DNA from: an uncultured Prevotellaceae bacterium
GTDB lineage: Bacteria; Bacteroidota; Bacteroidia; Bacteroidales; Bacteroidaceae
Length of the DNA stretch: 64,000 nucleotides
Direction: 5' to 3'
NCBI GenBank assembly: GCA_902767775.1
Contig: CACXIP010000005.1
Location: 124,001 to 188,000 of the forward strand
Positions 1,166 to 18,459 of this stretch are shown one piece after another. Positions within the stretch are counted from its first letter, which is position 1. Every line of letters starts with the position of its first letter. The notes under the pieces were generated by a model. It worked only from the letters and a program-made list of their open reading frames with translations. It made no database searches and was not told where the DNA came from. Both the position numbers and the translations under genes were made by a program.

Positions 1166-3380
1166 GGCGGCTGTCGCCCAAAATAATGAGTTGGATAAAT
1201 ATGCCTATGAACATGGCGATGAAAGAAAACATGATGAGAAAGTTGGGCAAGATAAAAAACTGCAAGCCCTTTTCAAAAGGCCCCCACACTGCTGCTATGG
1301 GTAATTTCTCATTATTATCTTTCAGATGACATACATTCACAAGATTATATACCTTACCACTCATTGTTGTTGTATCTTCTGTAACTTTTTCCATAATTAA
1401 GCCTCCATTATTTGGATTGTTAACGTACTCCGTATAAAAGTTATTGAGGACATCACTTCGTTCCATGTATTTTGCACCAAGGAAATCAATGATGAAAAAT
1501 CCAACTATCAACGAGATGGTGTAACTAATAATCAATGATTCAAGACTACGTAATACCTTTTTCCAAGTTGGGATAGATGGGGTAATACGATTGATTTCAT
1601 ACATGATGAATAAGAATACAATAACCGATATTAATATAGCATGGCGCCAACTGGGCATAGAATCAAAAAAGCTGGCATAAAGATCAAATCCCGCGGACAA
1701 AGTAAACCAAGCCAGAGTGATTGAAGCTACTGCACGTGGAAGAAGAAGGTGTAGTTTTGCCACAAAATCAAATTTTGGCAAATTAAAGAATTTAGAACAA
1801 TAATAATTCCATAAAAACAAGAAAATGAAGAAGACCAAACCAATTAAAATGAATCCCCAACCAACAGGAAAGAGTTTACTGAGAACAATGTAGCCTGCTA
1901 CCCCAGCTATACAAGTGCTAATAATCAAAAAAGAAAGGCGTTTTATTACAATTCTGTTACGAGCAGCTACCAATTCTCCCCATTCATCGTCTTTTTCTTG
2001 TTTAACTGTTTTCCATAATCGTAACACGGTTCTTAACAAAATAAGTAATACCACAAATATAACAATTTTGATCCAAACTGATAATTCAGACCACGAGACG
2101 TTTGATGGCATATAGATTATCCAACTAAGGATTAGAACCTGTAGAAAACTACTAATGGTATTTGACCCTCGGAAAAAATGCAGATGCAGCACATCATTAA
2201 AATCGTAGCGTTTGAGAAACCATTGGGATGCTTTTTCTCGAGAAAGATTTCGCAACATCACCATATCAATGGATTTTGGGTCGTCATTTTTCTCCAATTG
2301 TAAAAGATCAACCAAAGTATCTGAATTACAGATATGAGGCACAACGCTTTCTTTTTGATTATCTTCTGTCTTTCTATACTCTTCTGTCTTAAAACATACG
2401 CGTTTCATTTCTTCTTCTGGTTCAGCAAACCAAGATGGCCATGACTCGAATTGGTTTGTTCCCAAAAAGGAATTCTTCATTTTCTTGAGCATCCCTCTTA
2501 ATTTATAATAATCTTTTGGATGGTTTTTCACAAAAAAGACCTCGGCTTGGGGAGACATGATATCTTCCATCCATAGACTTTCTGCTTGGAATAATTCTTT
2601 CGCAGGAAATGTGGTTATGGATTGGAGAGCTTTATTACTAATATCTTCTTTTTTATTTTTTGCAGCCACAATGGCTTTTCGTGTCATTATGCGTAAATAG
2701 TAATATTCACATTTATGCATCAAGGCAGAAAAAAAGAAATCTGACATCAACCCTGAATACATCTGCTGATAATAAATGCTATTTTGAAACACGTCTGAGT
2801 GTTTAAGGTCAAACATAAAATCAAGAAACAGCTTACGAAGAAATATAACTACATTACTATCATCTTCCAAAAGTCGAATGCAACCTTTATTATCAATATC
2901 CATCAACCAAAGGGTTGAGAAAGAAGGAGATTGGTTGACGTCTTTGCTTTTTTCTCCATCAGCTTTTGGTGTGTTTTCTCCCTTCATTTTTATAAGGGAG
3001 TTATGCGCTTTAATCACTTTTTCTAAATCAATGCCTCCACAACTATTGTTTATTACTATATCATTACTATCTTGAGGGGTTGCATCATTACTTTTTGGGT
3101 ATTTGGGATAAGAATTGTAGATATTCTGTATGGTTGAAGACAAGTTATTAGTGGCATCATTAGTGTATGGCAATTCCATAATTACCCAAGGTGTGTTACC
3201 TTTGACATCCTTATTAGCATCATTATGCAAATAAAAACGCACTGAATTATTTGTAATGGCAACACTGATAGAAAAAATGCAGGAATCTTTGGCTGGAAGG
3301 TCCGTGTAGTCAAAGATGGAGATAACGTTTTCCACCTTTTTGTATAAAGAATTAAAACTAAAAAAACAACCTGGTTTCAT
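1149..3380 (-). CDS. Large multi-pass membrane protein, unknown function
   Basis: A 743-residue protein that I cannot assign to a family. The first ~400 residues are soluble, charged and Asn/Lys-rich with no signal peptide. From about residue 408 onward there are roughly eight hydrophobic segments; one pair is split by a charged linker (KQEKDDEWGELVAARNR), and the last, at about 708-735, ends in ILGDSRQITEF. The gene is strikingly A+T-rich compared with the flanking sugar-enzyme genes and lies between two truncated genes, which suggests horizontal arrival. It is transcribed away from the vWA/tubulin/calpain operon. Membership of that system is possible from proximity only. Confidence 0.75.
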   Translation of the reverse strand: MKPGCFFSFNSLYKKVENVISIFDYTDLPAKDSCIFSISVAITNNSVRFYLHNDANKDVKGNTPWVIMELPYTNDATNNLSSTIQNIYNSYPKYPKSNDATPQDSNDIVINNSCGGIDLEKVIKAHNSLIKMKGENTPKADGEKSKDVNQSPSFSTLWLMDIDNKGCIRLLEDDSNVVIFLRKLFLDFMFDLKHSDVFQNSIYYQQMYSGLMSDFFFSALMHKCEYYYLRIMTRKAIVAAKNKKEDISNKALQSITTFPAKELFQAESLWMEDIMSPQAEVFFVKNHPKDYYKLRGMLKKMKNSFLGTNQFESWPSWFAEPEEEMKRVCFKTEEYRKTEDNQKESVVPHICNSDTLVDLLQLEKNDDPKSIDMVMLRNLSREKASQWFLKRYDFNDVLHLHFFRGSNTISSFLQVLILSWIIYMPSNVSWSELSVWIKIVIFVVLLILLRTVLRLWKTVKQEKDDEWGELVAARNRIVIKRLSFLIISTCIAGVAGYIVLSKLFPVGWGFILIGLVFFIFLFLWNYYCSKFFNLPKFDFVAKLHLLLPRAVASITLAWFTLSAGFDLYASFFDSMPSWRHAILISVIVFLFIMYEINRITPSIPTWKKVLRSLESLIISYTISLIVGFFIIDFLGAKYMERSDVLNNFYTEYVNNPNNGGLIMEKVTEDTTTMSGKVYNLVNVCHLKDNNEKLPIAAVWGPFEKGLQFFILPNFLIMFSFIAMFIGIFIQLIILGDSRQITEF

Positions 3381-3479
3381 ATAAAAAAGTAATTTATTAG
3401 TTATTCTATAATTCTAAATCCCACAGTACTTTATCAAAATTGCACGCTCGTTGATGAGCGTGTACTTCTTTGGAGAAGA

Positions 3480-3644
3480 CTATATGGAGGATATGAAGAG
3501 CCAAAACATGTATGAAGAAAAAACATAGATGTCTGCTGCAATATGGAATATCCGAGTAGTATTATAGACCAAGGCAAAACCTATCCCCAACAGCGAATAA
3601 AGGATTCCTGTTATCAGTCCGTTGATGATGAATTGCCAAATCAT
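3480..3644 (-). pseudogene. LivH-like permease N-terminal fragment (54 codons)
   Basis: An ATG at 3644 opens 54 codons reading QFIINGLITGILYSLLGIG, then FALVYNTTRIFHIA, ending in TAG at 3480-3482. This resembles the first transmembrane segments of LivH-type branched-chain amino acid ABC permeases (INGL..G..YALIALG..LIY...), which are normally about 290 residues. The rest of the permease and its partners are absent. A good promoter box lies just upstream, so a short hydrophobic peptide could still be made. A truncated gene is more likely than a real small membrane protein. The rest of the gap 3381-3838 holds only promoters and A+T-rich sequence. Confidence 0.5.
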
Positions 3645-3670
3645 AGGTGTGTCGTTCAAATACTATGATG

Positions 3671-3678
3671 CAAATTTA
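3671..3678 (-). promoter_or_regulatory. Bacteroidetes -7 promoter box (TAAATTTG)
   Basis: The minus strand reads TAAATTTG, matching the TAnnTTTG element used by the primary sigma factor of Bacteroidetes, about 27 bases before the ATG of the LivH-like fragment. It suggests that the truncated permease gene kept its own promoter. Confidence 0.5.
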
Positions 3679-3807
3679 CAAAAAAATCACATTCGACAAG
3701 AATTTTTGAGTTTTTCTTTTTATCAACTATCTTTATTATATGCTGTTTTTTTTAATCCGACTGTGTTATATTTTTCATTATTTTTTCCTCTTTATATTAA
3801 AATTCAC

Positions 3808-3815
3808 TATATTTG
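3808..3815 (+). promoter_or_regulatory. Bacteroidetes -7 box (TATATTTG) for lipoprotein/patatin pair
   Basis: TATATTTG followed by CAAAC lies 23 bases before the ATG of the lipoprotein gene at 3839 and fits TAnnTTTG. It would drive the overlapping lipoprotein and patatin genes as one transcript. Confidence 0.6.
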
Positions 3816-3838
3816 CAAACAATTACCATTAAAAGATT

Positions 3839-4294
3839 ATGAAAAAGACTGCCCATGAAATTCACATTGTGTTCTGCATGTGTGTCTGCATGTTGTTAGT
3901 AGCCTGCGACAGCAACACCAACATCATTCCTTTTTTAAGCTCTGACGTCAAATCGGAAGAGTTCTATCAGCATATGCTGGAGCAGTTTTGCCAGGAGCAC
4001 TACGACAACCTTTACAAGGACTTTTGGGGAAAGAGGAAATACCAAGCCGGTTCTCTTAGAATTGACAGTGTCCGGCCTATCGGGGAGCGCGAGGTGAACA
4101 TATACGGTAAACATGATTTTGATGGACGAATCATTGGTTTGAAGCATCCTAACCGTGAGTTTAAGGCCAATATCCTTGAGACCAAGAATAACTCCCACGT
4201 ATACATCATTACTTTCGAGAAAGAAAGCAAGAAGATTATCTCAGGGAAACCATACTGGGAAGCACGAACAAAGAAATTTTATTATGAAGAATAA
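3839..4294 (+). CDS. Small lipoprotein, unknown function
   Basis: 151 residues beginning with a lipoprotein signal (hydrophobic stretch ending LLVACDS, lipobox Cys near residue 23). The mature part is mixed alpha/beta with no motif I recognise. The gene overlaps the following patatin gene by 11 bases and shares its promoter, so the two are translationally coupled and their products, both lipid-anchored, may work together in the envelope. Confidence 0.7.
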   Translation: MKKTAHEIHIVFCMCVCMLLVACDSNTNIIPFLSSDVKSEEFYQHMLEQFCQEHYDNLYKDFWGKRKYQAGSLRIDSVRPIGEREVNIYGKHDFDGRIIGLKHPNREFKANILETKNNSHVYIITFEKESKKIISGKPYWEARTKKFYYEE

Positions 4295-5174
4295 GTATGC
4301 ACATATCATCATAGGAGCATGTCTCCTGCTGACAATCATTGGCTGCACGACTCCGAAGATAGGCATAGTTTTTGGAGGAGGAGGTGCCAAGGGTGCTGCC
4401 GAGGTGGGAGTTCTGAAAGTGCTGGAGGAAGCTGGCATCAAGGCCGACTATATTGTGGGCAACAGTATGGGTGCGGTGATAGGAGGATTGTATGCGGCCG
4501 GATACACTGCCGATGAAATCGAGGAAATGCTGTTGAAGGAAGAATGGATGTGGGTGTTTGACGAGAAGAAACTATTCACTATCTTCAGCGACAAACGTTA
4601 TCCAACCGGTTTGGTCAGTGGTCCGTATTTCCGAGAACAATTGGACAAAGTCCTCACTGCCAAGGGCGCACATCTTTTTCACCATATCAAGACCCCATTT
4701 GTATGCGTGGCGACGGATTTGAGCAAGCATCCTTTCGAGGAGGTAGACATGTCGGAAGGTGTTGTGGCTGAGGCGATACGCATCTCCATGGCATATCCCG
4801 TTCCCGGCAATGCACCCATCAAAATGGACGGCAAGGAACTGGCAGACGGAGGCATCGTCAACAACCTGCCAGTGGATGTTGCCAGAAAGATGGGAGCCGA
4901 TATTGTCATCGCCATCGACTTAGAGCAAGGCGGCAACGATTTCAATATCGGAATACCAACCATAGAAGCCATCACAGAGTGGTTGAACACACGGCCCGAT
5001 ATTGAGAAACGCCTCAAGAACATCGATGATGCCGACATTTACATCCACCCCAACCTGACTGGATTCAGCATCAAGGATTATGCCCCCGACAGTATGTCCA
5101 AAATGATTGAAATCGGTATAAAAACAGCAAGAGAACAATTTGAGCAACTTGCTGAAATTGGAAGAAATCGGTAG
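4284..5174 (+). CDS. Patatin-like phospholipase, lipoprotein
   Basis: 296 residues from the ATG at 4284. This start is chosen because it gives a proper lipoprotein signal (LLLTIIGC, Cys21); the longer frame from 4155 does not. All patatin motifs are present: glycine-rich oxyanion loop GGGGAKG (31-37), nucleophile elbow GNSMG (Ser61) and the catalytic Asp188 in ADGG. The family hydrolyses acyl esters of membrane lipids; RssA/YlbK-type bacterial members have this size. It overlaps the upstream lipoprotein gene and lies just before the vWA/tubulin operon, which has its own promoter. An envelope housekeeping role is as likely as a role in the neighbouring system. Confidence 0.85.
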   Translation: MKNKYAHIIIGACLLLTIIGCTTPKIGIVFGGGGAKGAAEVGVLKVLEEAGIKADYIVGNSMGAVIGGLYAAGYTADEIEEMLLKEEWMWVFDEKKLFTIFSDKRYPTGLVSGPYFREQLDKVLTAKGAHLFHHIKTPFVCVATDLSKHPFEEVDMSEGVVAEAIRISMAYPVPGNAPIKMDGKELADGGIVNNLPVDVARKMGADIVIAIDLEQGGNDFNIGIPTIEAITEWLNTRPDIEKRLKNIDDADIYIHPNLTGFSIKDYAPDSMSKMIEIGIKTAREQFEQLAEIGRNR

Positions 5175-5209
5175 ATGAAGCAAAAAATAATCAAAAAGGA
5201 GAAATTTTA

Positions 5210-5241
5210 TTTGCATATAAAAAAAAAAGAATTTATATTTG
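5210..5241 (+). promoter_or_regulatory. Promoter of the vWA-adaptor-tubulin operon
   Basis: A TTTG at 5210-5213 and TATATTTG at 5234-5241 are separated by 20 bases, the spacing expected for Bacteroidetes -33/-7 elements. The region is very A/T-rich and leaves a leader of about 45-50 bases before the ATG at 5294. Confidence 0.7.
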
Positions 5242-5293
5242 CACAAATCCATATTGACAATCTAATTAAATACGTAAAAAACATAATCTTTCT

Positions 5294-6298
5294 ATGAGAA
5301 AATTTTTTCTTTTTTTTATTGGTTTGTTTATTTGTTTTGTTCAAAACCTAAAAGCAGAAGATGCTAACAATCCATATGTGCATTGTATTGTCCTTGACAA
5401 AACAATGTCGATGATTGGGCATGGAGGCACCAATATATGGTCTGATGTTCAGAATTATTGTTATGAATGGATAGATGGTATCCCAGAGTCTTCAACGGTC
5501 TTGTTTTTCACTTTCGACCAAAAACTAAATGGCCCTCAGAAGTTTGTCATTAATTCTGATAGCGACAAAAAAAAGTTCAAGGAGGCGGTGAAGAATGTCA
5601 AAGTTGATGGTCAGCGCACTTGGATTTCTTCAAACCTCAACGATGTGGTGAAACATATTCATGACAACTACCCTAAATCCAAATACAATTGTAGGATATA
5701 CTTGGTAACCGATGGAAAGGAGGAACAACCACAGGCTGACTTTGCTGGTGTGTTACGCAATTATGGTAGTTGGAGAGGTGATTACGATTATTTATATTAT
5801 GTAGACTTGCGTGACTTGGCTCCACAAGAGACAAAAGATGCCTTGGATAAGGCTTCTGGTGCAGATTATGGTAAAGGCTTCACCCAATTCTTGACCATTA
5901 ACCCTTTGTTTAAGGATATCTTTTTAACTTTGGGAAAAAAAACATTCGAACAACATTTCATAGTCCCCAATGAGAATATTTTCTCGGACATGCCGTTTGA
6001 TATCAAATTAGGATCAGTAAAAGCGATTGGGGGAAACACCACACCCAACGTTTCCATAACCCCTTCCAGGAACATCACCAAAAGTGATATGAAAAAGATG
6101 GAGGAAGGGAAGTTCAAGTTGACCTTCAATGTTGATTTCACCAACTCCACCCCGTGTGAATGTGACATTGTCGTAAAGTTGGAGGGACGTAATCAAAAAG
6201 ACAAAGTCGTCAATTTTGAACCAGGGGAATTCACCATCAAGGTCAGAAAGAAAAAGGCCCCCATGGTGACAGTCAAAAATGGCATAGGTTGGCATTAA
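5294..6298 (+). CDS. Secreted von Willebrand factor A domain protein
   Basis: 334 residues with an N-terminal signal peptide (cleavage near LKA-ED, residue 21). A vWA fold follows with a recognisable metal site: LDKTMS (Asp35-Ser39, DxTxS instead of the usual DxSxS), a downstream RTWISSNLNDV segment and VTDGKEE. The C-terminal third (about 215-334) looks like beta-sandwich. vWA domains bind protein partners through the metal. It is the first gene of the operon, 31 bases before the adaptor gene. A vWA protein next to a tubulin/FtsZ-like protein is a known association (predicted membrane-remodelling system with the second FtsZ-like family). Periplasmic sensing or scaffolding is inference. Confidence 0.8.
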   Translation: MRKFFLFFIGLFICFVQNLKAEDANNPYVHCIVLDKTMSMIGHGGTNIWSDVQNYCYEWIDGIPESSTVLFFTFDQKLNGPQKFVINSDSDKKKFKEAVKNVKVDGQRTWISSNLNDVVKHIHDNYPKSKYNCRIYLVTDGKEEQPQADFAGVLRNYGSWRGDYDYLYYVDLRDLAPQETKDALDKASGADYGKGFTQFLTINPLFKDIFLTLGKKTFEQHFIVPNENIFSDMPFDIKLGSVKAIGGNTTPNVSITPSRNITKSDMKKMEEGKFKLTFNVDFTNSTPCECDIVVKLEGRNQKDKVVNFEPGEFTIKVRKKKAPMVTVKNGIGWH

Positions 6299-6329
6299 AT
6301 CAAACAGCAATCAAAATACAGGAATAGGG

Positions 6330-7133
6330 ATGAAAAAGAGTTTTGTTTTTATAGTTCTAATGGCCTTTGCCTGCATGACTGTGACGGCCGAGGTGTTGAA
6401 TAAGGGAGAAGAATTTGTCAAACGGTTGGAATTGGAGTTCGATGAACAAGCCAAGGCCGACAATGTTTTCATCACATGGAAACTCAGTGGTGATTGGGAA
6501 AAATTTGATTATAGCTTTTCGCAAGGTACGCTGAAGGAAAACAAATATACCATTCGGGCGAAAGATTATAAGAACTTTGTCGATGGGAATGAAGGAATCA
6601 CCTTGATTGTCAATGGCAAGTCTGACACAAAAGCCGGTGACTACACGCTTTCCATGCGCGTTACTGACGTTACGGAAGATTTGATTTTCTCAAAGGATGT
6701 GCTGAATGCTGACTTCAAAATCAGTTATGTACTTCCGCCACCTCCACCATTGTGGAAGCGAATTCTCCCTTATGCCATAGCCCTGATAGCTTTGATAATT
6801 CTGACTTTACTTGTACTGCATTTTTCTGCCAAATTCCCCAATTGCATGTTGCAGTTAGGAAATGATGTGGTGGAACTCAAGGGGCGTAAGAAAATCTCGG
6901 TGAGAAAAGAACTGGAAAACCTGGGCAGAACAGTGGGCGCGGATATGGATGTGGTGTTGGTGAAAAAACGTTTCGTGTCTTACCAGGGACCGACGATTAA
7001 GGAGATAAAAGGTTGTGAGTTGAAACGTGCCGATGGTTCACCGCTTGAAATAGGTGATTCCATATATCCCGATGAGACCATATTCGGGTTGAAAGACTCC
7101 ATGGGTAATGATATCATCATTCGCCAATGTTAA
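6330..7133 (+). CDS. Single-pass membrane adaptor, unknown family
   Basis: 267 residues: signal peptide (1-20), a predicted periplasmic beta-rich domain (about 21-135), a Pro-rich linker (PPPPPLW), one transmembrane helix (about 146-166) and a ~100-residue cytoplasmic domain containing VRKELENLGRTVGADMDVV. The layout would link the periplasmic vWA protein to the cytosolic tubulin-like protein encoded next. No family was recognised; the cytoplasmic part lacks FHA motifs. Spacing in the operon (31 bases before, about 120 after) supports co-transcription. The bridging role is inferred from topology only. Confidence 0.7.
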   Translation: MKKSFVFIVLMAFACMTVTAEVLNKGEEFVKRLELEFDEQAKADNVFITWKLSGDWEKFDYSFSQGTLKENKYTIRAKDYKNFVDGNEGITLIVNGKSDTKAGDYTLSMRVTDVTEDLIFSKDVLNADFKISYVLPPPPPLWKRILPYAIALIALIILTLLVLHFSAKFPNCMLQLGNDVVELKGRKKISVRKELENLGRTVGADMDVVLVKKRFVSYQGPTIKEIKGCELKRADGSPLEIGDSIYPDETIFGLKDSMGNDIIIRQC

Positions 7134-7252
7134 AACAAATCTACAGATACCAAATGGGCACATCGGATAAGAATGCGTGTGAAATCATAAATGAGTGATT
7201 AACGAACAATATACAAAAATCAATAAAATAACAACAAAAAACCTATAAGATT

Positions 7253-10200
7253 ATGGCAAAAGACATTTCTAGAACATTGATTATCGGCCTCGGTGGTACT
7301 GGCCAGTCGGTCATTCGCGAAGTAAGGAAGAGGTTGTTCAGAAGATACGGATATGTGCCTGAGTTGGTGAAATTCCTTTCATTCGATACAGATCAGCTTG
7401 ATTATGAAGACACCCCTTTCAAATATTATTATAATGGAGAAAACCATGAGACTAAATTGTACAATATACAGGATGCAGAATTCAAGCAAATTGGACGTCC
7501 TAGACTAGCTGTGTTGAGGACTGACCCGGTTTGTCAGAATTTGAATTTCGACAAATTGGAAAGAATTTATGGCTTGACAAACGGAGTAGGCGCCAATGGT
7601 TACAGAATAATGGGAAGAGCTCATTTCTTGTTTAATTCTCAAGAAATAATGACTGTGCTTATTAATACAGTTAATGAGCTTAAGAATTCGCAACAATTGG
7701 CAGATGCGGCAGGCCGTAATGGCTTCAATGTTGTTCCCGGCGTAAACGTGTATATTGTTGCGTCACTTGCCGGCGGTACAGGAAGCAGTGCTTTTATGGA
7801 TCTTTCCAGAATGTTGCAACATGCAGGAATAACAGTTGTTGATAATAATGCGGATGCAATGTCCGATAGGATTTATGGCGTATTTTATCTGCCATCGTTT
7901 TTTAGAACCAAGCCTAACACTCCCAACATCATGGTAAATACTTACGTTGCACTTTCCGAATTAGACCATGCCCTTAATCTTTCTGGTATGGCCGAGGGCT
8001 CCGAAGAACGAGATAACGATAATAACAGTTATAATGGCGATACAGGCATCAATTACCCGGTAAGATTTTCCAATGTCTTTTTAGTGGATAAGACCACAAA
8101 AAAGGGTAATAAACATGAATTTAAAGAAGCTTCAAGTTATGTAGGCTCGTTCTTGGCAGCATGCATTGCTGCAGACGATCAAAAATTGGAATCCACCTTT
8201 TCCAATTCAACTCATGTATTAAGAGATTTAGATGGTAAAAAGCAGTTCTATAGTGGTATGGGGTACTGCGAAATCCGATTGAATCGCCAGAATTTGGTGA
8301 AGTATCTTCTCAATCGTCAACTTCGCGCGAGCTTGTTGAAATTCAAGGATGGAGATGCTGATTTCAGCATGGACGAAGTTGCAGACAAGTTTATAGAAGA
8401 CAATCAACTGAATGAAGGAATCAAACCACAAAACGAGGGGGAAGAAGATACTCGTCCTCAGCTGAATCAACTGATTGACTCGATATATAAAATTGAAGAC
8501 AAGAGGTTCGTGAATCAGGTGATGTCCATACCTGCGACAGGGAAAGATGCGAGTGCTGACATCGTGAGAAACCGTGACAACTTTTTGACTGCTATTAAAG
8601 CACAAGTCACGTCGGCCCTTGATAATTTTGCAGAAAGGAAGAGAACGATTTCCACCAATCTTAAGAACTTGCTTGATGAATACCAGGCAAAAGAATGCTT
8701 TGGCAGGTTCCCCGACCTTGCCAAACGGCTTCGTTTGTCATTTACATTGATGAAAGAAGGCCTTGAGGAGGAAATTGCCGAACACGAAAAGCAAGAGCAG
8801 AATGTATTAGAGAGTCTTCAGTCAGACTGGAATTTCATCAAAAATAACCATGGTAAGGGTTTTTGGGGGGGATTATTTGGCGACAGCAAAGAGGACGCTC
8901 AGAAACGAAGGATAGCTGTATACAGGAACAAAGTGCAAGGTCTTGGCACAGATGCCAATCCCACTCTCTGCCGATTGGCACTTGAGAAAGCCAGGAAGGA
9001 AGAGGCTGTCAAGGTTTATAAAAAGTTGATAGAAATCGTTACTTCTTACTACAAGGAGGATGAAGTGGAAAAGAAGGGAAAGAAAACTCTTGACGTTTCA
9101 GGCACCTTCTTGGACGTGATGAGCTCTTTCGACCAACTGAATAGGTTGATTCTTGCCGAAAACGAGGCATATAAACCCGCCAAGGAGGCAAAGAATGAGA
9201 CCATTTTGATTGATGCCTATTTCAAGGAATACTTTGAAAAAAACGACGGCAGAGCCTTCGAATTCACTGAAGCCTTATGTGCAAACTTGTATGGGCAATT
9301 CTCCAAGATCCTCTCCGATGAGAATCCGTTGGGCAATAACACAGTAGGGAACTTGAGAAATCACTTGATGGCAGCGTTGCCTGACACGGCGCTTATCAAG
9401 AAAATCCAAACTTATCAGATGTCTTTGGATCAATTATTCATCGAGTGTTTTGGCGTAGCAAGAGGGATTCAGGATTCAAGAGATTTCGACAGGTATCCTC
9501 ACCTGACTATTTTCAGCCAACTAAAAGCCTTGTTCGACCCGCTTTGGAATTATGGGGAATTTAGAGGAGGCAATTCTCTTCAACCAGAAATTGCATGCAT
9601 GGTGGGTGTTTATGATGACCAATTCCATATTTTGGACAAAAATAATGGCTACAATCGTTACCTTCCCAAAGCTCACAGTTTTGAATTTGTGAATGTGGGC
9701 GATCCAGATATGATACTCTTTATGCTACAAGAAGGAGCCATTCCAGGATTTACATTAAGAGATATTTCCATTTGGAAAGGAGACTATGATAGTAAAAAAC
9801 AGTTTATTTATTCCTTCTCAGATCAGCGCCTTGAAGGTATTGATATGTTAGTTCCTGAAGCTTTGGACGAGAATGGCGAAATCGCCTGGGCTTATGGTTG
9901 GCTGTTCGGCTTGATCAAATATGAACACGGTAGGGTAAGAGTTAAACCATCGGCTAAATATATGAGAAATAACCGTCTCGTAAAGGATAATTATGAATGT
10001 TATGATTATTTTGGAATCAAGATTCAAAATCCTTCAGATTTAGCCAAATGCCACCGCGAGTTTATCAGAGACAAGGAGTTGTTCCAAGACATCTACGATC
10101 AAGCTATGGTTTTACTGAAAAGTGATCCGAATAGAAACATTGTGAGGATTGCCCATTGGGTAAACGATGATGAAATGTGGGCGGTTGCCATTAGAGGAAA

Positions 10201-10435
10201 ACTCAGGGGCAGCATGAGGGAGGCCGAACGTCAAGTGGTAGAAGAGGAAGTAGTTTATCTCGCAAAGCGCTTCGACAGAGTAAGTACACCAAATCTTAGA
10301 TTAGAATATGACGAAACTTCAGGAAAAGTCAAATATTACGATTCTTTAGGCGTTCTCGATTCCCTCGAAGGTGAATATGCAGAACAAAAGAAAAATCAAG
10401 AAGAGAAATCGAAAAAGTCCGACGGGAAATCCTGA
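7253..10435 (+). CDS. Giant tubulin/FtsZ-like GTPase (Tubulin_2-like)
   Basis: 1060 residues, no signal peptide. The N-terminus carries the nucleotide-binding loop IIGLGGTGQSVIREV (Gly12-Ser19), and residues 170-180 read SLAGGTGSSAFMDL, the counterpart of the tubulin/FtsZ GGGTGSG signature (Gly174-Ser179). This is the pattern of the large 'tubulin-like' bacterial family (PF13809 type), far longer than FtsZ (~380). The middle, about 470-560, is charged and probably coiled coil; the rest is unassigned, ending in a Lys/Glu-rich tail. It presumably binds GTP and may form filaments at the membrane with the vWA and adaptor proteins. A strong hairpin terminator follows directly. Confidence 0.8.
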   Translation: MAKDISRTLIIGLGGTGQSVIREVRKRLFRRYGYVPELVKFLSFDTDQLDYEDTPFKYYYNGENHETKLYNIQDAEFKQIGRPRLAVLRTDPVCQNLNFDKLERIYGLTNGVGANGYRIMGRAHFLFNSQEIMTVLINTVNELKNSQQLADAAGRNGFNVVPGVNVYIVASLAGGTGSSAFMDLSRMLQHAGITVVDNNADAMSDRIYGVFYLPSFFRTKPNTPNIMVNTYVALSELDHALNLSGMAEGSEERDNDNNSYNGDTGINYPVRFSNVFLVDKTTKKGNKHEFKEASSYVGSFLAACIAADDQKLESTFSNSTHVLRDLDGKKQFYSGMGYCEIRLNRQNLVKYLLNRQLRASLLKFKDGDADFSMDEVADKFIEDNQLNEGIKPQNEGEEDTRPQLNQLIDSIYKIEDKRFVNQVMSIPATGKDASADIVRNRDNFLTAIKAQVTSALDNFAERKRTISTNLKNLLDEYQAKECFGRFPDLAKRLRLSFTLMKEGLEEEIAEHEKQEQNVLESLQSDWNFIKNNHGKGFWGGLFGDSKEDAQKRRIAVYRNKVQGLGTDANPTLCRLALEKARKEEAVKVYKKLIEIVTSYYKEDEVEKKGKKTLDVSGTFLDVMSSFDQLNRLILAENEAYKPAKEAKNETILIDAYFKEYFEKNDGRAFEFTEALCANLYGQFSKILSDENPLGNNTVGNLRNHLMAALPDTALIKKIQTYQMSLDQLFIECFGVARGIQDSRDFDRYPHLTIFSQLKALFDPLWNYGEFRGGNSLQPEIACMVGVYDDQFHILDKNNGYNRYLPKAHSFEFVNVGDPDMILFMLQEGAIPGFTLRDISIWKGDYDSKKQFIYSFSDQRLEGIDMLVPEALDENGEIAWAYGWLFGLIKYEHGRVRVKPSAKYMRNNRLVKDNYECYDYFGIKIQNPSDLAKCHREFIRDKELFQDIYDQAMVLLKSDPNRNIVRIAHWVNDDEMWAVAIRGKLRGSMREAERQVVEEEVVYLAKRFDRVSTPNLRLEYDETSGKVKYYDSLGVLDSLEGEYAEQKKNQEEKSKKSDGKS

Positions 10436-10450
10436 ATGACCTGAATGCAG

Positions 10451-10480
10451 AAAACGGCAGGTGACCACCTGCCGTTTTTT
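10451..10480 (+). terminator. Intrinsic terminator inside the operon
   Basis: A perfect 12-base-pair stem (AAAACGGCAGGT / ACCTGCCGTTTT) with a GACC loop and a T-run lies 16 bases after the tubulin gene stop and 39 bases before the calpain gene. No convincing TAnnTTTG box lies between hairpin and calpain start, so the protease may depend on read-through and be made at low level. Confidence 0.8.
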
Positions 10481-10518
10481 AGAATTAGCAATTTGTAATT
10501 AACAAAAAAGGTATTGAT

Positions 10519-13500
10519 ATGATGAACATTGGATACGTTTTTGACTTGAGTGGACTTCTGTGTGATAAGCATAATGGCATCCCTTATCTGCATGGACTTG
10601 CCATAGATTGTGCTGCATATAATAAAGGTAATGGCTTGACACTAACGGAAATAAAAGCTTGCAGAGACAGGATGATGATGAAGTATGCTAAAGAAAACAT
10701 CAAAAAACATTTCTTTTACTTCGTTTTTGACAACGATTTTGAAATACTGCCAAACCTCGCAAGATGTGTGGATACTATTCAAGGAGAACCTTTGTTTGAC
10801 CAGCAACACTATGTCATCCATTTACTATGCAATTTTACCAGAGAAGATGGTTTCGATATCGCCGGTTTTCAAAATGCCATGCCCGCGCTGCGTGATAACA
10901 GAAACAATGTCTATACATGGTTGTTGGACAAATATGACGACAATGGAGCAATGCCAATCCCCTCTTTGCGGAGGTCTCATGCTCTTTGGCGACTCATCGG
11001 AATGCTTAACAATCATGGCATTTCATTGCGGCAGATGGATAACCAAGGGAATCCTTTATATACTTTTTTTGGCGATGCAAGTATCTTCTTCGACGAGGAA
11101 CAACGAAATACGGATGCAAGAAATTATTTCTTTTTCAAGAACTTGCAGCACCTTTTGAATTTGTCTGACCTCAAAATTGAGGAGTTCATGCAAGGATACG
11201 TACGCCCCTTCTATAATAATGCCAAGGAAATGGAGAAGCGTTTAGACGCCCAGGCTGAAGGCTTCTTAGAGGAACAACGTGTTCCCATTCAGGCCCCAAT
11301 CATATGCGATGTAACACAAAACTTGCTCATCAAGGATGCTGAAGACGACCAAGAGTATCTTGTAGATGTCAAGGACGACAGTCTTGTCTTCATAGAAGAT
11401 TTGTCTCGTAAGCAAGACTGGAAGATGAAGGAAACAGATGCTTTGCTTCAAGAATTCTTCATAGCCGTTGAAAGGGGTGAGAGAGTTCAAGAATATTCTG
11501 GCGAGGAATATCAAGAAAATCTTTCCAGCGATTTCCTTGAAAGGTTGCAAGAGAAAGTAGATGTTCAGAAACGTATTTTAGAAAATGATATAACTAAAGA
11601 AATATCGCATAGCAGAGAAAGCCAAGTCGAGATGTTTAAAAATCATCTTGACAACCACTTACTAAAGTTTCTCAACAAGCAAGACGATTTAAACTACAAT
11701 TTTTTGAACGAAAAACTGCTTGAGGATGAAGTTAAGAAACATTGCTCAAACTTGGATTACGGCATATCCTTCCTTGAATACCTTGCTGAGGGCAGAAGCA
11801 ATTATCTTGTCGACCAAGAGGTTGCTGTTGGGGATGTCAATTTAGAGAAGATTCGTCGTCATGCATACGATTTGAAGGAAAAACGCGCCTATGACTTGGA
11901 TAAAAAGGAGAAGGAAATGACAGAAAAGAAAAGGCCTGGTGCCAATGGTGAGCCTTCAAGAATTAGGACAGCATTCAACATGATAGACCAACGCATTGAC
12001 AGCTTTATTGGAAAAATCAGAAGATTGAACTATCAAATAGAAAAATGGTGGGACGCGGATGAAGAGAAAAAACTTACGACCAAGTCGAAGATTGTCTTGG
12101 CGGTGCTGACAGGTGTCTTTCTCGCTCTCATCTGGTGGCTGGTTTCTGCCACATTCATTGCACCTCTCTTTGATGACCCAAAGGATTGGCAGAAGCAGCA
12201 GTGGACGATATTCGTCTTGTTGGTATTGGCAGGTGTTGTTGTCGGCTCATTGTTTTTTTGGCAATGGCACAACAACTTGAAGAATGCAAAATCTGACCTG
12301 AAAAGGGCAAAACAAGAAAAGAAGAATTTGATGTCTGATTGCGTAAAAGATGAGATAGCTTTGGTCGAGTTGCGCTATAACTACAAATTGGCCTACTATG
12401 CTTTGAAGACCATCGACGAACTGATAGAATTGGCACAGCTGAAAAAGAAGGACCTTGAAAACTATCGCAAGGAACTCTTCAAGCTAATGCTCAAATACAA
12501 GATTGCCTTGGAAAACCAGGGACAAAATCAGAAGAATGATTTCAATACGATTGAGCTGAAAGACCACGATGTGGCCAGAATCTTGTTTGGAGAAGAGGAC
12601 AATGGTCGGGAAATTCGCTATCGATTCGCCCAAGACGGAGTGGAGTTAGCTGCTACCTTTGCCCACTATAGAAACAGAAAGGCTCTGTTGGAGACCACAC
12701 GATTCAACTTTGACTACGTTCCAGCCAAGGATTTTGACAGGGAAGCCGTTGCCAAAGAGGTGATTCCTGCTTGTTCAAAGCATGCTAATGAGGGCTTGGA
12801 ATACTCGGCATTGCCCCAACTCTCGGTGCTGCCCCCTGTGGAAGGTGTTGAGATGGATGATGTTCATCAAGGTTCTTGCGGTGATTGCTATTTCTTAGCG
12901 ACCCTGGCCTCCATCGCAAACGTGAATCCAGATTTCATCATTGGTGAACGAGGATTGGTGGAAGAATTGGATGAAGAAGAGCATAAGTTCTTTAGAGTTA
13001 GGTTTTATGACAAAGATGGAAACCGCGTAAATATTGACATTAACAATAAGTTTTGGAACAAAAATGGCATACCATTTTATGCTGGAAAAGGCAAGTCGAC
13101 CGCCTCTGAAGGCAACACCTATGATCCATGGGTTATGGCCGTTGAGAAGGCTTGGGCCAAGGCTAATAACGCAGGCTATGATGGAATTGAAGCAGCAAGT
13201 GCCGATGGGGTCGAGAGGCATCGCAAGGTAGAATATAGTTTTGCTGTAACAGGTAAGAGTGCTTTCTACTGTATGACTAAAAACGTCCTCGACCCAGATA
13301 GACTCGCCGAAATGATTAGAAAACATTTTGCGAATGAGAAACCGGTTACTTTTTATTCAGCCAGTCCATCCGATTCTGACTTCTCCAATAAGGACCAATT
13401 CTTGGTAACCAATCATGCTTATGCCCTTCGTTCTGCAAATGAAGATGGCACTTTTGACATTTTCAACCCATGGAATTCTCATCCTGAGGGAGAACGAGGT

Positions 13501-14043
13501 CAGCACTACAAGAAAAAAGACATCATTTTTATCAAGGATAATTTTGACGTAGTTGTCTTCTTCGACATTAAAGAGTCAGATTTTGATTCTTTTGAGAGAG
13601 ATTTGACAGGAAATGTCCAACAAAAAGAGTTGACCGATGGCATTGAAAGATTATTGGCTGAGGGATTTGATGAGATTGGATTGCCTTTAAGAAATATTGG
13701 CGATTTATTGAACGATGAGGATTTGAGAAGAATGTGTACTTATTCGTCTTACCTGTATAATACCAATACATTAAGAGACAGAAGAGGCATTGATGGAGGA
13801 GAACATCATCGATTGTTTATTGAGGGAACAAGAGATTATGCAAAAGCCAACGAAAAGGTAGGCGACTTCGTGAAAAGTAATGGGGATGGCGATGTGGAGG
13901 AGTTGTCCAATAGGGTTGATGACAAGCAAAGCATCACCTTGTTGAAAGTTTCTTCTCATTACAGGCTTGACAACTTTTGTGAAGTACTAGGACAAGATGG
14001 TCAAGACAAAGATGGCCATGACCAAGATGATGATAGACATTGA
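10519..14043 (+). CDS. Membrane-anchored calpain-type cysteine protease
   Basis: 1174 residues. The first ~510 form a large unassigned cytoplasmic region with coiled-coil stretches. Two transmembrane helices (about 525-545 and 560-580) form a hairpin that keeps both ends in the cytosol. A second charged helical stretch follows. The C-terminal domain is calpain-like (peptidase C2): oxyanion Gln784 and nucleophile Cys790 in HQGSCGDCYFLA, His966 in TNHAYALR, Asn983 in IFNPWNSH. The triad is complete, so activity is expected. A ~170-residue tail follows, possibly inhibitory or substrate-recognising. The gene follows the vWA/adaptor/tubulin genes in the same direction behind a terminator. The role as protease effector or processing enzyme is inference. 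Confidence 0.85.
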   Translation: MMNIGYVFDLSGLLCDKHNGIPYLHGLAIDCAAYNKGNGLTLTEIKACRDRMMMKYAKENIKKHFFYFVFDNDFEILPNLARCVDTIQGEPLFDQQHYVIHLLCNFTREDGFDIAGFQNAMPALRDNRNNVYTWLLDKYDDNGAMPIPSLRRSHALWRLIGMLNNHGISLRQMDNQGNPLYTFFGDASIFFDEEQRNTDARNYFFFKNLQHLLNLSDLKIEEFMQGYVRPFYNNAKEMEKRLDAQAEGFLEEQRVPIQAPIICDVTQNLLIKDAEDDQEYLVDVKDDSLVFIEDLSRKQDWKMKETDALLQEFFIAVERGERVQEYSGEEYQENLSSDFLERLQEKVDVQKRILENDITKEISHSRESQVEMFKNHLDNHLLKFLNKQDDLNYNFLNEKLLEDEVKKHCSNLDYGISFLEYLAEGRSNYLVDQEVAVGDVNLEKIRRHAYDLKEKRAYDLDKKEKEMTEKKRPGANGEPSRIRTAFNMIDQRIDSFIGKIRRLNYQIEKWWDADEEKKLTTKSKIVLAVLTGVFLALIWWLVSATFIAPLFDDPKDWQKQQWTIFVLLVLAGVVVGSLFFWQWHNNLKNAKSDLKRAKQEKKNLMSDCVKDEIALVELRYNYKLAYYALKTIDELIELAQLKKKDLENYRKELFKLMLKYKIALENQGQNQKNDFNTIELKDHDVARILFGEEDNGREIRYRFAQDGVELAATFAHYRNRKALLETTRFNFDYVPAKDFDREAVAKEVIPACSKHANEGLEYSALPQLSVLPPVEGVEMDDVHQGSCGDCYFLATLASIANVNPDFIIGERGLVEELDEEEHKFFRVRFYDKDGNRVNIDINNKFWNKNGIPFYAGKGKSTASEGNTYDPWVMAVEKAWAKANNAGYDGIEAASADGVERHRKVEYSFAVTGKSAFYCMTKNVLDPDRLAEMIRKHFANEKPVTFYSASPSDSDFSNKDQFLVTNHAYALRSANEDGTFDIFNPWNSHPEGERGQHYKKKDIIFIKDNFDVVVFFDIKESDFDSFERDLTGNVQQKELTDGIERLLAEGFDEIGLPLRNIGDLLNDEDLRRMCTYSSYLYNTNTLRDRRGIDGGEHHRLFIEGTRDYAKANEKVGDFVKSNGDGDVEELSNRVDDKQSITLLKVSSHYRLDNFCEVLGQDGQDKDGHDQDDDRH

Positions 14044-14061
14044 TAATGCATGATATTCACT

Positions 14062-14303
14062 AAAAATATTAATAACAAGTTTTGAACAAAAATGGGAAAC
14101 CATTTTATGCAGGAAAGGGCAAGCCGACCGACCATGAGGGGAACACCTACGACCCATGGATTATGGCCGTTGAGAAGGCTTGGGCCAAGGCCAATAACGC
14201 AGGATATGATGGAATAGAAGCAGCAAGTGGCGATGGTGTTGAAAGGCATCGCAAAGTAGAATATAGTTTTGCGATAAATGGTAAGAATGCCTTCTACTGT
14301 TAG
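14062..14303 (+). pseudogene. Decayed partial copy of the calpain domain
   Basis: The stretch repeats the segment around 13035-13270 of the calpain gene with few changes: FYAGKGK ... TYDP, then AVEKAWAKANNAGYDGIEA and VERHRKVEYSFA. It lacks the part with the catalytic Cys, and at its start one G of TTTTGGAAC is missing, giving TTTTGAAC, a stop plus frameshift. It ends in TAG where the parent reads CMTKN. It is the remnant of a second calpain gene or a failed tandem duplication. The remaining gap to 14538 shows no gene. Confidence 0.8.
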
Positions 14304-14538: not shown

Positions 14539-17500
14539 ATGAAAGCAAATGCCTACCTCATCATAGTGGTGTGCCTCATGCTCTGCGGGAGCGTCAGCGC
14601 ACAGAAGAAGCCAAGGAAAGAACTGTATGTGCCGATGGACTACTCCACCTGCGGCTACCACGCATCGGAATGCGTCATCCCCGATGTGCCGACCGTCATC
14701 ACCCTGTCATGGAAGGAAGGAGATGACACAGAGCGCATCCAGTGTGCCATTGATGAGGTGTCGCAGATGACACCCGATGCCAACGGCCACCGTGGCAGCA
14801 TCGTTCTCGATGAGGGCACATGGAACATCCGCCAACCCCTGCGCATCAGCGCCTCAGGCATCGTGCTGCGCGGCATGGGGCGCAACAAGACGACCTTGGT
14901 GGGGCACGGCGATGACCGTGGCGCCATCATCTATATTGAAGGCAGAAAAATACAGCAACCTGCTTCCTTTGGAAGAAGAAACATGCCGGGAGCTCCAAAC
15001 GCCGTTGACACCATCTGGCTCAGCGACAACAAAGTGACGGCAGGAAGCACACAACTCACCCTTTCCTCCCCCACCACCCAACTGCATACAGGCGACCGCA
15101 TCAGCATCATCAGGCCCTGCACGCGGCCTTGGATAGAGCATCTGAAAATGTATGAATTCGGCGGCGGACTCGACTTCACCGGATGGAAACCCACCGACAT
15201 CGACATCACCTGGGACCGCGCCATCACCGCCATCGAGGGCAATGTCATCTCCATCGATGCACCCATCACCACCACCCTCAGCAGCGAGTGGGGCAAGGCA
15301 TACATCCTCCGACAGTCACATGAAGGCGAACTGACCAAGTGCGGCATCGAGAACATGACGATAGAGAGTGCCGTCAACGACTGGAACCCCAAGGACGAGG
15401 ACCATCCGTGGGACGGCATCACAATGGACAATGCCCGCGACTGCTGGGTGCGCATGGTGAACTTCCGCCACCTCGCCGGCAGTGCCGTCCACCTGCAGAA
15501 AGTCACCAGCCGCATCACCGTGGAGGACTGCATCGCCACCGAACCCGTTTCCGAAGTGGGCGGATGGCGCCGCCAAGTGTTCCTCACCCGCGGACAGCAG
15601 ACCCTTTTCCAGCGCTGCGTCTCCCGCCAGGGTGTCCACGACTTCGCAGCAGGCTATTGCGCCGCCGGTCCCAACGCCTTTGTTCAATGCGAAGGTGAGG
15701 AGTCACTCGGTTTCAGCGGCAGCATCGGTTCATGGGCAGCCGGTCTCCTCTTCGATATCGTCAACATCGACGGCAGCGACCTGCGCTTCGCCAACCTCGA
15801 GCAGTTCCAGACCGGAACGGGTTGGAACACCGCCAATTCGATGTTCTGGCAATGCACCGCCTCCGGCATCTTCTGCTACTCGCCCGATGCCGACAACCGC
15901 AACAGCGCACATGGCTGCTGGGGCATGCTCACCGGCAACGGAGAGTGGACCAGCAGCAACGACCATGTCAGTCCCCGTTCACTGTTTTATGACCAACTTC
16001 AGCGCCGTCTCTCCGACCGCGCAGACTCAAAAGAACTGGTGAGCCGCCTTGCCCACATCCTTCCACGCTCTCTTGAAGCCACCACCTCCCCTACCGTGGA
16101 GCAGGCGATGGCAATGGCGAAGGAGTCGCTCACCCATCCACGCTTCACCCTGGAGATGTGGATTGACAGCATCGAGACAAAGAACTGGCAAGGCAAGGTT
16201 TTCAGCACAAGGAAGACATCCAATAAAACCAAAAAGACAAAGAAGGACAAGGTTACCAAAGATGCCAATCCATTCATCACCACCACAATAGTAGACGCCC
16301 ACCTCACTCTGGATAGGATGCTTATCACCGGCAGCGAGTACAGCATCCCCTGGTGGAACGGACGAGTGAAAGACAATTATGTGAGACGTGAGGGCAGACC
16401 CGCCATCACCCGTTTTGTGCCCGGTAGGGAGGGTACGGGATGGACCGACCGCATCGACAGTGTGGTCAACTTCCTCGACGCCCACCACCAGGCATCGCTC
16501 AACCACCATTACGGACTGTGGTACGACCTGCGCCGCACCGACCATGAGCGCATCCGCCGCGCCGACGGTGACGTATGGGCACCCTTCTATGAGCAGCCCT
16601 TCGCCCGCAGCGGACAAGGCACTGCCTGGGACGGTCTGTCACGCTACGACCTCACCCGTCCCAACCGATGGTATTGGAGACGACTGAAATCCTTCGCCTC
16701 CAAGGCTGAGCCAAAGGGCATCCTTCTCTTCCACCAGCACTATTTCCAGCACAACATCCTTGAGGCGGGGGCACACTGGGTAGACTGTCCGTGGCGGCCT
16801 GTGAACAACATCAACGGCACCGACTTCCCCGAACCCGTGCCTTTCGCCGGCGACAAGCGCATCTTCCTCGCCGAACAGTTCTACAACGAGCAGAGCGAGG
16901 TGCTACGACCCCTCCACCGCCAATATATCCGCATGTGTCTGGAGCAGATGAAAGAATATCCCAACGTGGTGCATCTCATCAGTGCCGAATACACGGGTCC
17001 GCTCCACTTCACCCGTTTCTGGGTGGAGACCATCGCCGAGTGGGAGGCAGAGACTGGATATCATCCATTGGTAGCACTGAGCTGCACCCGCGATGCGCAG
17101 GACAGCATCATGGCAGACCCAAGGCTTGCCAAAGTAATCGACATCATCGACATCCGCTACTGGCACTACAACACCAACGGACTGTGGGCACCTTTGGGCG
17201 GCCACAACATGGCTCCCCGTCAGTGGATGCGCAAGATGCCAGCAGGGAAGACCGGTTTCGACGAGGTCTACCGCGCTGTCAGCGAATGCCGTCAGCTATA
17301 TCCCGACAAAGCCGTCACCTACAACTCACCGTCAGCACCCGTCAGCGGATGGGCAGTTCTCTTCGCGGGCGGTTCACTGCCCAACATCCCCCTCCGTATT
17401 TCTGGCGCCACACCCTTGCAAAAGACTCTGCTTGCTGATCTCTGCCACATGAAGTCAATGTCCGGCGAGGGATGTCTTACGCTCGGCAATCCCAAATCAG

Positions 17501-17682
17501 GTTACCTCCTCTATACGCTTTCAGACAAGGCGAGCATAGCCGTTGAGCAGGGCACATATGAAATCTATTCTGTGGATGCCAGAAATGGTGACATCAACCC
17601 CATCAACCGTGCCACCGCCCTCAGCGGCAGATATTCCACAGAGGCAGGAAGCCATCAGATATTGTGGATAAAGAGGAAATAA
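14539..17682 (+). CDS. Secreted beta-helix protein with DUF6298-like domain
   Basis: 1047 residues with a signal peptide (CGSVSAQ, about 22). Residues ~45-470 look like a right-handed parallel beta-helix of pectate-lyase type (GSIVLDEGTWNIRQPLRIS, ASGIVLRGMGRNKTTLVG and repeated turns). The C-terminal half (about 590-1047) carries blocks such as NHHYGLWYDLRRTDHERI and ILLFHQHYFQHNILEAGAHW, which I associate with DUF6298 of Bacteroidales polysaccharide loci. A short Lys/Thr linker joins the halves. The paired His/Trp-rich motifs suggest a glycosidase-like TIM barrel, but the substrate is unknown; a pectin-derived sugar is inferred from the neighbours. Confidence 0.65.
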   Translation: MKANAYLIIVVCLMLCGSVSAQKKPRKELYVPMDYSTCGYHASECVIPDVPTVITLSWKEGDDTERIQCAIDEVSQMTPDANGHRGSIVLDEGTWNIRQPLRISASGIVLRGMGRNKTTLVGHGDDRGAIIYIEGRKIQQPASFGRRNMPGAPNAVDTIWLSDNKVTAGSTQLTLSSPTTQLHTGDRISIIRPCTRPWIEHLKMYEFGGGLDFTGWKPTDIDITWDRAITAIEGNVISIDAPITTTLSSEWGKAYILRQSHEGELTKCGIENMTIESAVNDWNPKDEDHPWDGITMDNARDCWVRMVNFRHLAGSAVHLQKVTSRITVEDCIATEPVSEVGGWRRQVFLTRGQQTLFQRCVSRQGVHDFAAGYCAAGPNAFVQCEGEESLGFSGSIGSWAAGLLFDIVNIDGSDLRFANLEQFQTGTGWNTANSMFWQCTASGIFCYSPDADNRNSAHGCWGMLTGNGEWTSSNDHVSPRSLFYDQLQRRLSDRADSKELVSRLAHILPRSLEATTSPTVEQAMAMAKESLTHPRFTLEMWIDSIETKNWQGKVFSTRKTSNKTKKTKKDKVTKDANPFITTTIVDAHLTLDRMLITGSEYSIPWWNGRVKDNYVRREGRPAITRFVPGREGTGWTDRIDSVVNFLDAHHQASLNHHYGLWYDLRRTDHERIRRADGDVWAPFYEQPFARSGQGTAWDGLSRYDLTRPNRWYWRRLKSFASKAEPKGILLFHQHYFQHNILEAGAHWVDCPWRPVNNINGTDFPEPVPFAGDKRIFLAEQFYNEQSEVLRPLHRQYIRMCLEQMKEYPNVVHLISAEYTGPLHFTRFWVETIAEWEAETGYHPLVALSCTRDAQDSIMADPRLAKVIDIIDIRYWHYNTNGLWAPLGGHNMAPRQWMRKMPAGKTGFDEVYRAVSECRQLYPDKAVTYNSPSAPVSGWAVLFAGGSLPNIPLRISGATPLQKTLLADLCHMKSMSGEGCLTLGNPKSGYLLYTLSDKASIAVEQGTYEIYSVDARNGDINPINRATALSGRYSTEAGSHQILWIKRK

Positions 17683-18401: not shown

Positions 18402-18429
18402 TATATTTGCAATCGCAAAGCTATCTTTG
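18402..18429 (+). promoter_or_regulatory. Two tandem -7 boxes before the sigma factor gene
   Basis: TATATTTG (18402-18409) and TATCTTTG (18422-18429), each followed by C, lie 31-58 bases before the ATG at 18460. They argue against the longer reading frame that starts at 18373, because that start lies upstream of both boxes. Confidence 0.6.
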
Positions 18430-18459
18430 CAAAAAATCTACTTAAGCAACCTAACCTAC

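What the first reader, a model, noticed from the sequence alone, without database searches (positions are those of the whole stretch)
5294..14043. vWA - membrane adaptor - giant tubulin - calpain operon: candidate new envelope-spanning system
Seen: four same-strand genes behind one promoter encode a secreted vWA protein with a metal site, a protein with periplasmic domain/one helix/cytosolic domain, a 1060-residue tubulin/FtsZ-like GTPase, and a 1174-residue protease with a membrane hairpin and complete calpain triad. Known: a second FtsZ-like family was predicted to form a membrane-remodelling system with vWA proteins. A calpain partner is not part of that description as I know it. Inference: an envelope signal passes vWA to adaptor to tubulin polymer, which gathers or activates the protease; this could be defence, cell-death or envelope repair.
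Basis: partly seen in the sequence, partly recalled or inferred. Interest (0 to 1): 0.85.

Follow-up and report, generated by a model that had tools for sequence, protein, structure and literature searches.

The report
Tubulin-linked membrane protease module, Bacteroidota
Four neighbouring bacterial genes look like one portable device that senses something outside the inner membrane and passes the signal through a tubulin-like protein to a calpain-type protease, and sister devices carry a papain-type protease in the same slot.

Summary
The four genes are real and form one conserved cassette: secreted vWA, single-helix adaptor, Tubulin_2 (FtsZl1-like) GTPase, membrane-hairpin calpain. Order and strand are the same in two other genomes (42-59% identity, catalytic triad invariant), with different flanks; a near relative of one of them (G910) has the corresponding site without the cassette (10.1 kb difference). 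Five sister loci have vWA + adaptor + Tubulin_2 followed by a large papain-family protease; in three of these vWA and adaptor are fused. In a same-genus genome a papain-type module lies beside the same lipoprotein-patatin pair that precedes the calpain module here. On three Thermales plasmids a related vWA-Tubulin_2-partner trio lies next to brxL (in one across an IS element), and a fourth holds a remnant beside brxL. Best reading: an envelope-spanning sensor with a tubulin-like scaffold and an exchangeable cysteine-protease output, probably for defence or regulated cell death. The module is well supported; signal path, polymer and purpose are inferred; the three calpain loci themselves show no defence neighbours. 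Both structure predictions failed. FtsZl1-vWA operons and predicted tubulin-vWA conflict systems were already in print; a calpain or papain output was not found in what I read.

The parts
3839..4294 (+). small lipoprotein, possible accessory component
   Evidence: Homologue in the gene pair beside a papain-type module in G1112 (E 7e-50); no family
4284..5174 (+). patatin-like phospholipase lipoprotein, possible accessory effector
   Evidence: Pfam Patatin E 5e-32; GGGAKG, GNSMG, DGG motifs; closest relative found lies near a papain-type module in G1112
5210..5241 (+). Bacteroidota-type promoter motif, TTTG-N20-TATATTTG, 52 nt before the vWA start
   Evidence: in L076 and L077 only the -7 element is found upstream
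5294..6298 (+). secreted vWA-domain protein with MIDAS-type residues (DxTxS..T..D); vWA match about 5387-5728
6330..7133 (+). adaptor: signal, periplasmic region, one helix (aa 145-163), cytosolic region
   Evidence: hydropathy; conserved in three genomes; AF2 mean pLDDT 41, not usable
7253..10435 (+). Tubulin_2 / FtsZl1-like GTPase, 1060 aa; Tubulin_2 match about 7277-8329
   Evidence: Pfam E 7e-43; GLGGTG and AGGTGSS motifs
10519..14043 (+). 1174-aa partner protein with membrane hairpin and C-terminal calpain protease
   Evidence: Pfam C2 E 8e-13; profile of three homologues matches a solved Calpain-8 chain, E 1e-4
12091..12258 (+). codons of the transmembrane hairpin (aa 525-580)
12838..13443 (+). 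Pfam Peptidase_C2 match (aa 774-975); Cys790 codon 12886-12888, His966 13414-13416; Asn983 13465-13467 lies just beyond it
14068..14300 (+). diverged relic copy of part of the calpain domain, 87% nt identity, no intact frame

Best explanation
The four genes are one accessory module, probably moved between genomes. Shown by sequence: same order in three genomes; a relative of one of them with the corresponding site empty; sister modules with a papain protease in the same slot; three fusions of vWA to adaptor; a TM hairpin in the protease protein. Inferred: the vWA protein, with its metal site, binds a signal in the periplasm and docks on the adaptor; the adaptor passes this through its single helix; its cytosolic end nucleates or re-arranges the GTP-dependent tubulin-like protein under the inner membrane; this clusters the hairpin-anchored calpain, which turns on by proximity and cuts cytosolic or inner-membrane targets, giving dormancy, death or repair. 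Most likely purpose: defence against phage or another envelope attack, with the adjacent patatin lipoprotein as a possible second output.
For: Cassette conserved. Different flanks at the three loci. Corresponding site without the cassette in G910. Papain-type sister loci, 5 found; papain Gln, Cys, His, Asn invariant in the 4 aligned (roles recalled). vWA profiles of calpain and papain systems match, prob 98.6, E 7e-16, against 0.2 and 0.8 for two control pairs. vWA-adaptor fusions in L056, L102, L136. Same lipoprotein-patatin pair near a calpain module here and a papain module in G1112. Defence context of relatives: brxL next to the trio on three Thermales plasmids and beside a remnant on a fourth, PADLOC BrxL E <= 1e-97 in all four and HmaC in one; two TIR genes in G1112.
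Against: Flanks of the calpain loci are not defence islands: of 10 flank proteins scanned, 8 gave no PADLOC match and 2 gave matches of a general kind (a class-V aminotransferase to SspA/DndA, an RNase Y to Cas3). PADLOC has no model for the four proteins. No match in 50,697 phage records for tubulin or calpain, none for calpain in plasmids, none confirmed in viral contigs. Adaptors and partner proteins of calpain and papain systems show no significant similarity (adaptor prob 7, partners at most 21), so equivalence there is by position and layout. Of 11 Tubulin_2 plasmid loci opened, 7 list no brxL. Three members of the same tubulin group have a partner with no known protease (L089, L091, L103). 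The vWA call in L101 is weak (E 0.042). No expression or protein data.
Confidence: 0.55

Rival explanations
1. Envelope maintenance or membrane remodelling: the tubulin-like protein shapes or patrols the inner membrane, and the calpain removes damaged or surplus envelope proteins. No conflict function.
For: This is the published prediction for FtsZl1 operons (PMC2875224). Secreted vWA, TM adaptor, TM protease and a patatin lipoprotein all point to the envelope. Four Deinococcus plasmid relatives sit with OmpA genes, one also with a MotA/TolQ gene. Calpain-locus flanks are not defence genes.
Against: Rarity, the unoccupied site in G910, protease exchange, and brxL or TIR neighbours in relatives fit an accessory conflict system better.
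Confidence: 0.25
2. Regulated-proteolysis signalling: the protease cuts a specific regulator to switch gene expression on an extracellular cue; neither death nor defence.
For: Sensor-adaptor-scaffold-protease layout would suit it; the protease is membrane-anchored with both ends probably cytosolic (weak charge bias). A sigma-70-type gene lies 4.3 kb downstream in the window (18373-18981).
Against: That sigma gene is separated by a 1047-aa DUF6298 gene, and I recognised no regulator gene in the flanks of the other two loci that I scanned or listed; not every flank ORF was scanned.
Confidence: 0.12
3. Chance neighbours: the calpain gene is an unrelated gene that landed next to an FtsZl1 operon once.
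For: 13 of 15 Peptidase_C2 genes in 201 family genomes lie in genomes without a Tubulin_2 match.
Against: Same order in three genomes at 42-59% identity with different flanks; papain proteases in the same position in five more loci.
Confidence: 0.03
4. A secretion or processing machine for surface proteins, with the protease as its maturation enzyme.
For: Envelope topology only.
Against: I recognised no shared cargo or outer-membrane gene beside the three cassettes (not all ORFs scanned); the calpain protein has no signal-like N-terminus by hydropathy.
Confidence: 0.05

Closest known systems
FtsZl1-vWA operons (Makarova and Koonin 2010, PMC2875224; parts 1-2 of 5 read, plus a word search of the main text)
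   Same: Large FtsZ-like protein with N-terminal GTPase domain; operon with a vWA gene, some of them secreted or membrane-bound
   Different: Paper names GTPase, kinase and OmpA partners; the words calpain, protease, peptidase are absent from its main text (supplements not seen); here the operon ends in a calpain and sister operons in a papain protease
GAP1-N2 GTPase-centred conflict systems with tubulin and extracellular vWA (Kaur et al. 2020, PMC7159879; passages only)
   Same: Tubulin protein with C-terminal helical or coiled-coil part, vWA outside the membrane, conflict prediction
   Different: Those have a GAP1-type GTPase and FNIII proteins, tubulin versions in Firmicutes and Actinobacteria; no such family among the 7 window proteins scanned; calpain not mentioned in the main text
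Bacterial calpains (Rawlings 2015, PMC4631099; abstract, outline and passages)
   Same: Peptidase C2 domain with Cys/His/Asn; rare and patchy in bacteria; a few with TM helices
   Different: Tubulin, von Willebrand and operon do not occur in the main text; this subgroup is about 1147-1174 aa and tubulin-linked in the 3 of 3 found
BrxL- and Hma-bearing islands of Thermales plasmids
   Same: A related vWA-Tubulin_2-partner trio lies next to brxL
   Different: Partner of about 680 aa has no protease family; no BREX match among the window proteins scanned

Membership tests
FtsZl1 / vWA system | FtsZ-like N-terminal GTPase domain with GGTG(S) loop in a protein of about 1000 aa | tested here: met
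   PF13809 E 7e-43; AGGTGSS. That PF13809 equals FtsZl1 is my inference from size, layout and vWA linkage
FtsZl1 / vWA system | vWA gene in the operon | tested here: met
   PF00092 at the cut-off; profile match to vWA proteins of sister operons
FtsZl1 / vWA system | extended coiled coil and helical C-terminal domain | not tested
   tubulin not modelled; no coiled-coil program run
GAP1-N2 GTPase conflict system | GAP1-type GTPase in the operon | tested here: not met
   no GTPase family other than the tubulin among the 7 window proteins of 1149-14043
Calpain (Peptidase C2) | Cys/His/Asn catalytic residues | tested here: met
   C790, H966, N983 invariant in three
Calpain (Peptidase C2) | calcium-binding domains of classical eukaryotic calpains | tested here: not met
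   no other Pfam domain over cut-off; bacterial homologues lack calcium sites too (PMC4631099 abstract)
BREX | BREX core genes in the locus | tested here: not met
   no PADLOC BREX match among 7 window proteins of 1149-14043 nor 2 downstream ones
Anti-phage defence system | protection against phage | not testable with these tools
   needs a phage challenge

The most novel reading that the evidence does not exclude
A bacterial counterpart of supramolecular protease signalling: a periplasmic sensor triggers a tubulin-family scaffold that activates an exchangeable membrane-anchored cysteine protease (calpain or papain), with a patatin phospholipase alongside, as a defence or cell-death system.
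Probability: 0.3. Interest if true: 0.9.

Novelty: new variant of a known kind. Interest (0 to 1): 0.74.

Why it matters
I found no paper with a tested function for FtsZl1 proteins, described in 2010 (searches; open-licence papers only). A subset with a protease whose active-site cysteine can be knocked out makes the question testable. If the tubulin protein scaffolds and activates the protease, it would be a tubulin-based signalling assembly in bacteria, and it would link calpain and papain proteases, vWA sensors and tubulins in one prokaryotic pathway.

Tried and rejected
Chance adjacency: rejected by conserved order in three genomes. Strain-only linkage: rejected. Homology of the calpain partner's N-terminus with papain-type or protease-less partners: not significant; a likeness seen by eye is not counted. 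Adaptor homology between the two types: weak (prob 7). More distant patatin relatives (41-47% identity) as general partners: 8 loci opened, no Tubulin_2 profile match; one ORF in L144 gave a weak hit to the L136 papain protein (E 4e-7), not followed. Carriage on phages, viral contigs or plasmids: calpain none; tubulin only 3 distant Thermales plasmid records from the window query. The Tubulin_2 cluster most frequent (c0, 23 loci) showed no vWA or protease family over cut-off in the one representative scanned, L039, 8 proteins. A search for an empty site at the window's own locus gave the G1112 papain locus instead.

Full report
OBSERVATION. Pfam gives vWA (E 6e-5, at the curated cut-off), nothing over cut-off for the adaptor, Tubulin_2 PF13809 (E 7e-43) and Peptidase_C2 (E 8e-13). 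NCBIfam and PADLOC have no match over cut-off for the four; NCBIfam lists only weak ones (E 0.018 or worse). Hydropathy gives the described topology. C790, H966 and N983 are intact. A Bacteroidota-type promoter motif lies 52 nt before the vWA gene.

CONSERVATION. The closest full relatives are in L049/L076 (the same contig, Bacteroidaceae bacterium RGIG6404, sheep rectum) and L077 (Prevotella sp. Tb.RUG.323). Both carry vWA, adaptor, tubulin, calpain in the same order and strand. Identities to the window are 42 and 59% (vWA), 47 and 54% (adaptor), 52 and 43% (tubulin), 45 and 44% (calpain). The genome-contig scan used two short patterns and returned 2 loci, so it cannot show how rare the cassette is. 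Other searches: the calpain pair-alignment in 393 order genomes matched 5, the window and 4 with weak C2 hits; the tubulin pair-alignment in 296 phylum genomes matched 5, the window and 4 weak, and in 44 genomes of G200's genus matched 3 (G200 in full, G884 and G891 weakly). A six-tubulin alignment in 399 family genomes matched 48, 7 of them at E below 1e-70: five are genomes whose tubulins are rows of that alignment, the other two are G939 (papain type) and G1009 (no protease). By type the seven are two calpain, four papain, one neither.

MODULE BORDERS. Flanks differ at the three loci: L076 has a PHO4 transporter and an RNase Y next to the cassette, L077 a DUF5675 gene and a TPP enzyme upstream, the window a patatin upstream and a DUF6298 gene downstream. 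In the genus of L076's genome, G910 has RNase Y at 100% aa (as printed) and the same two flank genes without the cassette: L117 matches L076 6541-7180 at 93% and 17284-18749 at 97%, leaving 10,103 bp extra in L076. The stretch between the flank genes in L076 is 41% GC, L117 as a whole 51%. G886 (L118) shows the same arrangement at 77-84%. Of 8 relatives fetched, these two show the transporter next to RNase Y; six have no transporter match in the stretch fetched, one of them only 3.3 kb. Insertion in G200 or loss in the others cannot be told apart.

CALPAIN CONTROL. In 201 family genomes there are 15 C2 genes in 14 genomes. Two, in the window genome and G200, adjoin Tubulin_2 and have frames of 1184 and 1149 aa. 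The other 13 have frames of 450-666 aa and lie in 12 genomes that are not among the 32 Tubulin_2-positive genomes (same handles).

SISTER SYSTEMS. Five further loci have vWA, adaptor and Tubulin_2 followed by a 1143-1290 aa protein with a papain domain: L044, L056, L101, L102, L136. The vWA call is weak in L101 (E 0.042) and in L136 rests on similarity to L102 and L044, as Pfam found none. Papain-type Gln, Cys, His and Asn are invariant in the four aligned, L136 not included. In 7 genomes searched for PF00112, the best match in each of the four papain genomes among them is the tubulin-adjacent gene. In L056, L102 and L136 vWA and adaptor are one ORF with an internal helix; in L044 and L101 they are separate. 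The vWA profiles of the two types match with probability 98.6 and E 7e-16; two control pairs gave 0.8 or less. Adaptors match weakly (7%); partner proteins do not match significantly (best 21%, over the coiled-coil and hairpin stretch). Three members of the same tubulin group (L089, L091, L103) have a partner with no protease family. In a 24-row tree the calpain tubulins are one clade (100/100) and group with four papain-type and these three at 88/90, below the star threshold; with Thermales rows added, the order of these groups is unresolved. L136 is in neither tree.

SAME NEIGHBOUR PAIR. In G1112, same genus as the window, homologues of the window's small lipoprotein and patatin genes (patatin 70% aa) lie beside a papain-type module, in convergent orientation, with one 132-aa gene between. 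Beyond the pair and a 362-aa and a 344-aa gene lie two TIR-domain genes. Among 34 genus genomes sampled these two hold the only patatin matches over 50% identity along most of the protein. Eight of the weaker relatives opened have no Tubulin_2 profile match nearby. So the pair is either a component of the system or marks a shared site; n is 2.

DEFENCE CONTEXT. The window tubulin matches 3 plasmid records, all Thermales. In T. oshimai and M. taiwanensis the order is vWA, tubulin, partner, brxL; in A. silvanus a transposase gene lies between partner and brxL. A fourth record, T. thermophilus, has a tubulin remnant after a transposase gene, no vWA gene listed, a 689-aa gene in the partner position and brxL, near a type I-C CRISPR locus. 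PADLOC confirms BrxL in all four and HmaC in M. taiwanensis. Of 15 plasmid records matched by the T. oshimai tubulin I opened 11; the other 7 list no brxL within about 7 kb (the gene table is incomplete): four Deinococcus with OmpA genes, Azospirillum TSA2s with two caspase-family genes, and two others. For the calpain loci, 10 flank proteins were scanned: 8 have no PADLOC match at E 0.001; a class-V aminotransferase matches SspA/DndA and RNase Y matches Cas3, which their Pfam families explain.

LITERATURE. PMC2875224 predicts FtsZl1-vWA membrane remodelling (parts 1-2 of 5 read, and a word search). PMC7159879 (passages) predicts GTPase-tubulin-vWA conflict systems. PMC4631099 (abstract, outline, passages) treats bacterial calpains. 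PMC12839542 (one passage) treats BREX and has no word beginning with tubulin in its main text. None of what I saw links a tubulin-vWA operon to calpain or papain; supplements and subscription papers were not seen.

MECHANISM. Shown: parts, order, topology by hydropathy, catalytic residues, exchange of the protease type, vWA-adaptor fusion. Inferred: ligand sensing, signal direction, polymer, activation by clustering, targets and purpose.

Noticed in passing
window 14068-14300: Diverged copy (87% nt) of part of the calpain domain right after the gene, without an intact frame; recalls orphan cassettes of exchangeable effectors.
   Followed up: partly
L136 14527-18000: Two TIR-domain genes and a 344-aa gene of unknown family near the papain-type module of G1112.
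   Followed up: no
L130 (Azospirillum TSA2s plasmid) 10684-13914: Two caspase-family genes beside a Tubulin_2 gene, on the opposite strand: a third cysteine-protease kind near this family.
   Followed up: no
L135 (Deinococcus QL22 plasmid) 10241-12092: MotA/TolQ and OmpA genes after Tubulin_2, with weak PADLOC ZorA and ZorB matches.
   Followed up: no
L057 3673-6702: Partner protein with a membrane hairpin and a second, weak vWA match (E 2e-4) in place of a protease.
   Followed up: no
L039 7480-12915: Common Bacteroidaceae Tubulin_2 operon with two Tubulin_2 genes in tandem; the first matches only profile positions 139-355.
   Followed up: no
L056 3454-7326: Papain partner that also carries a lipase-like C-terminal stretch (Mbeg1-like E 9e-5).
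   Followed up: no
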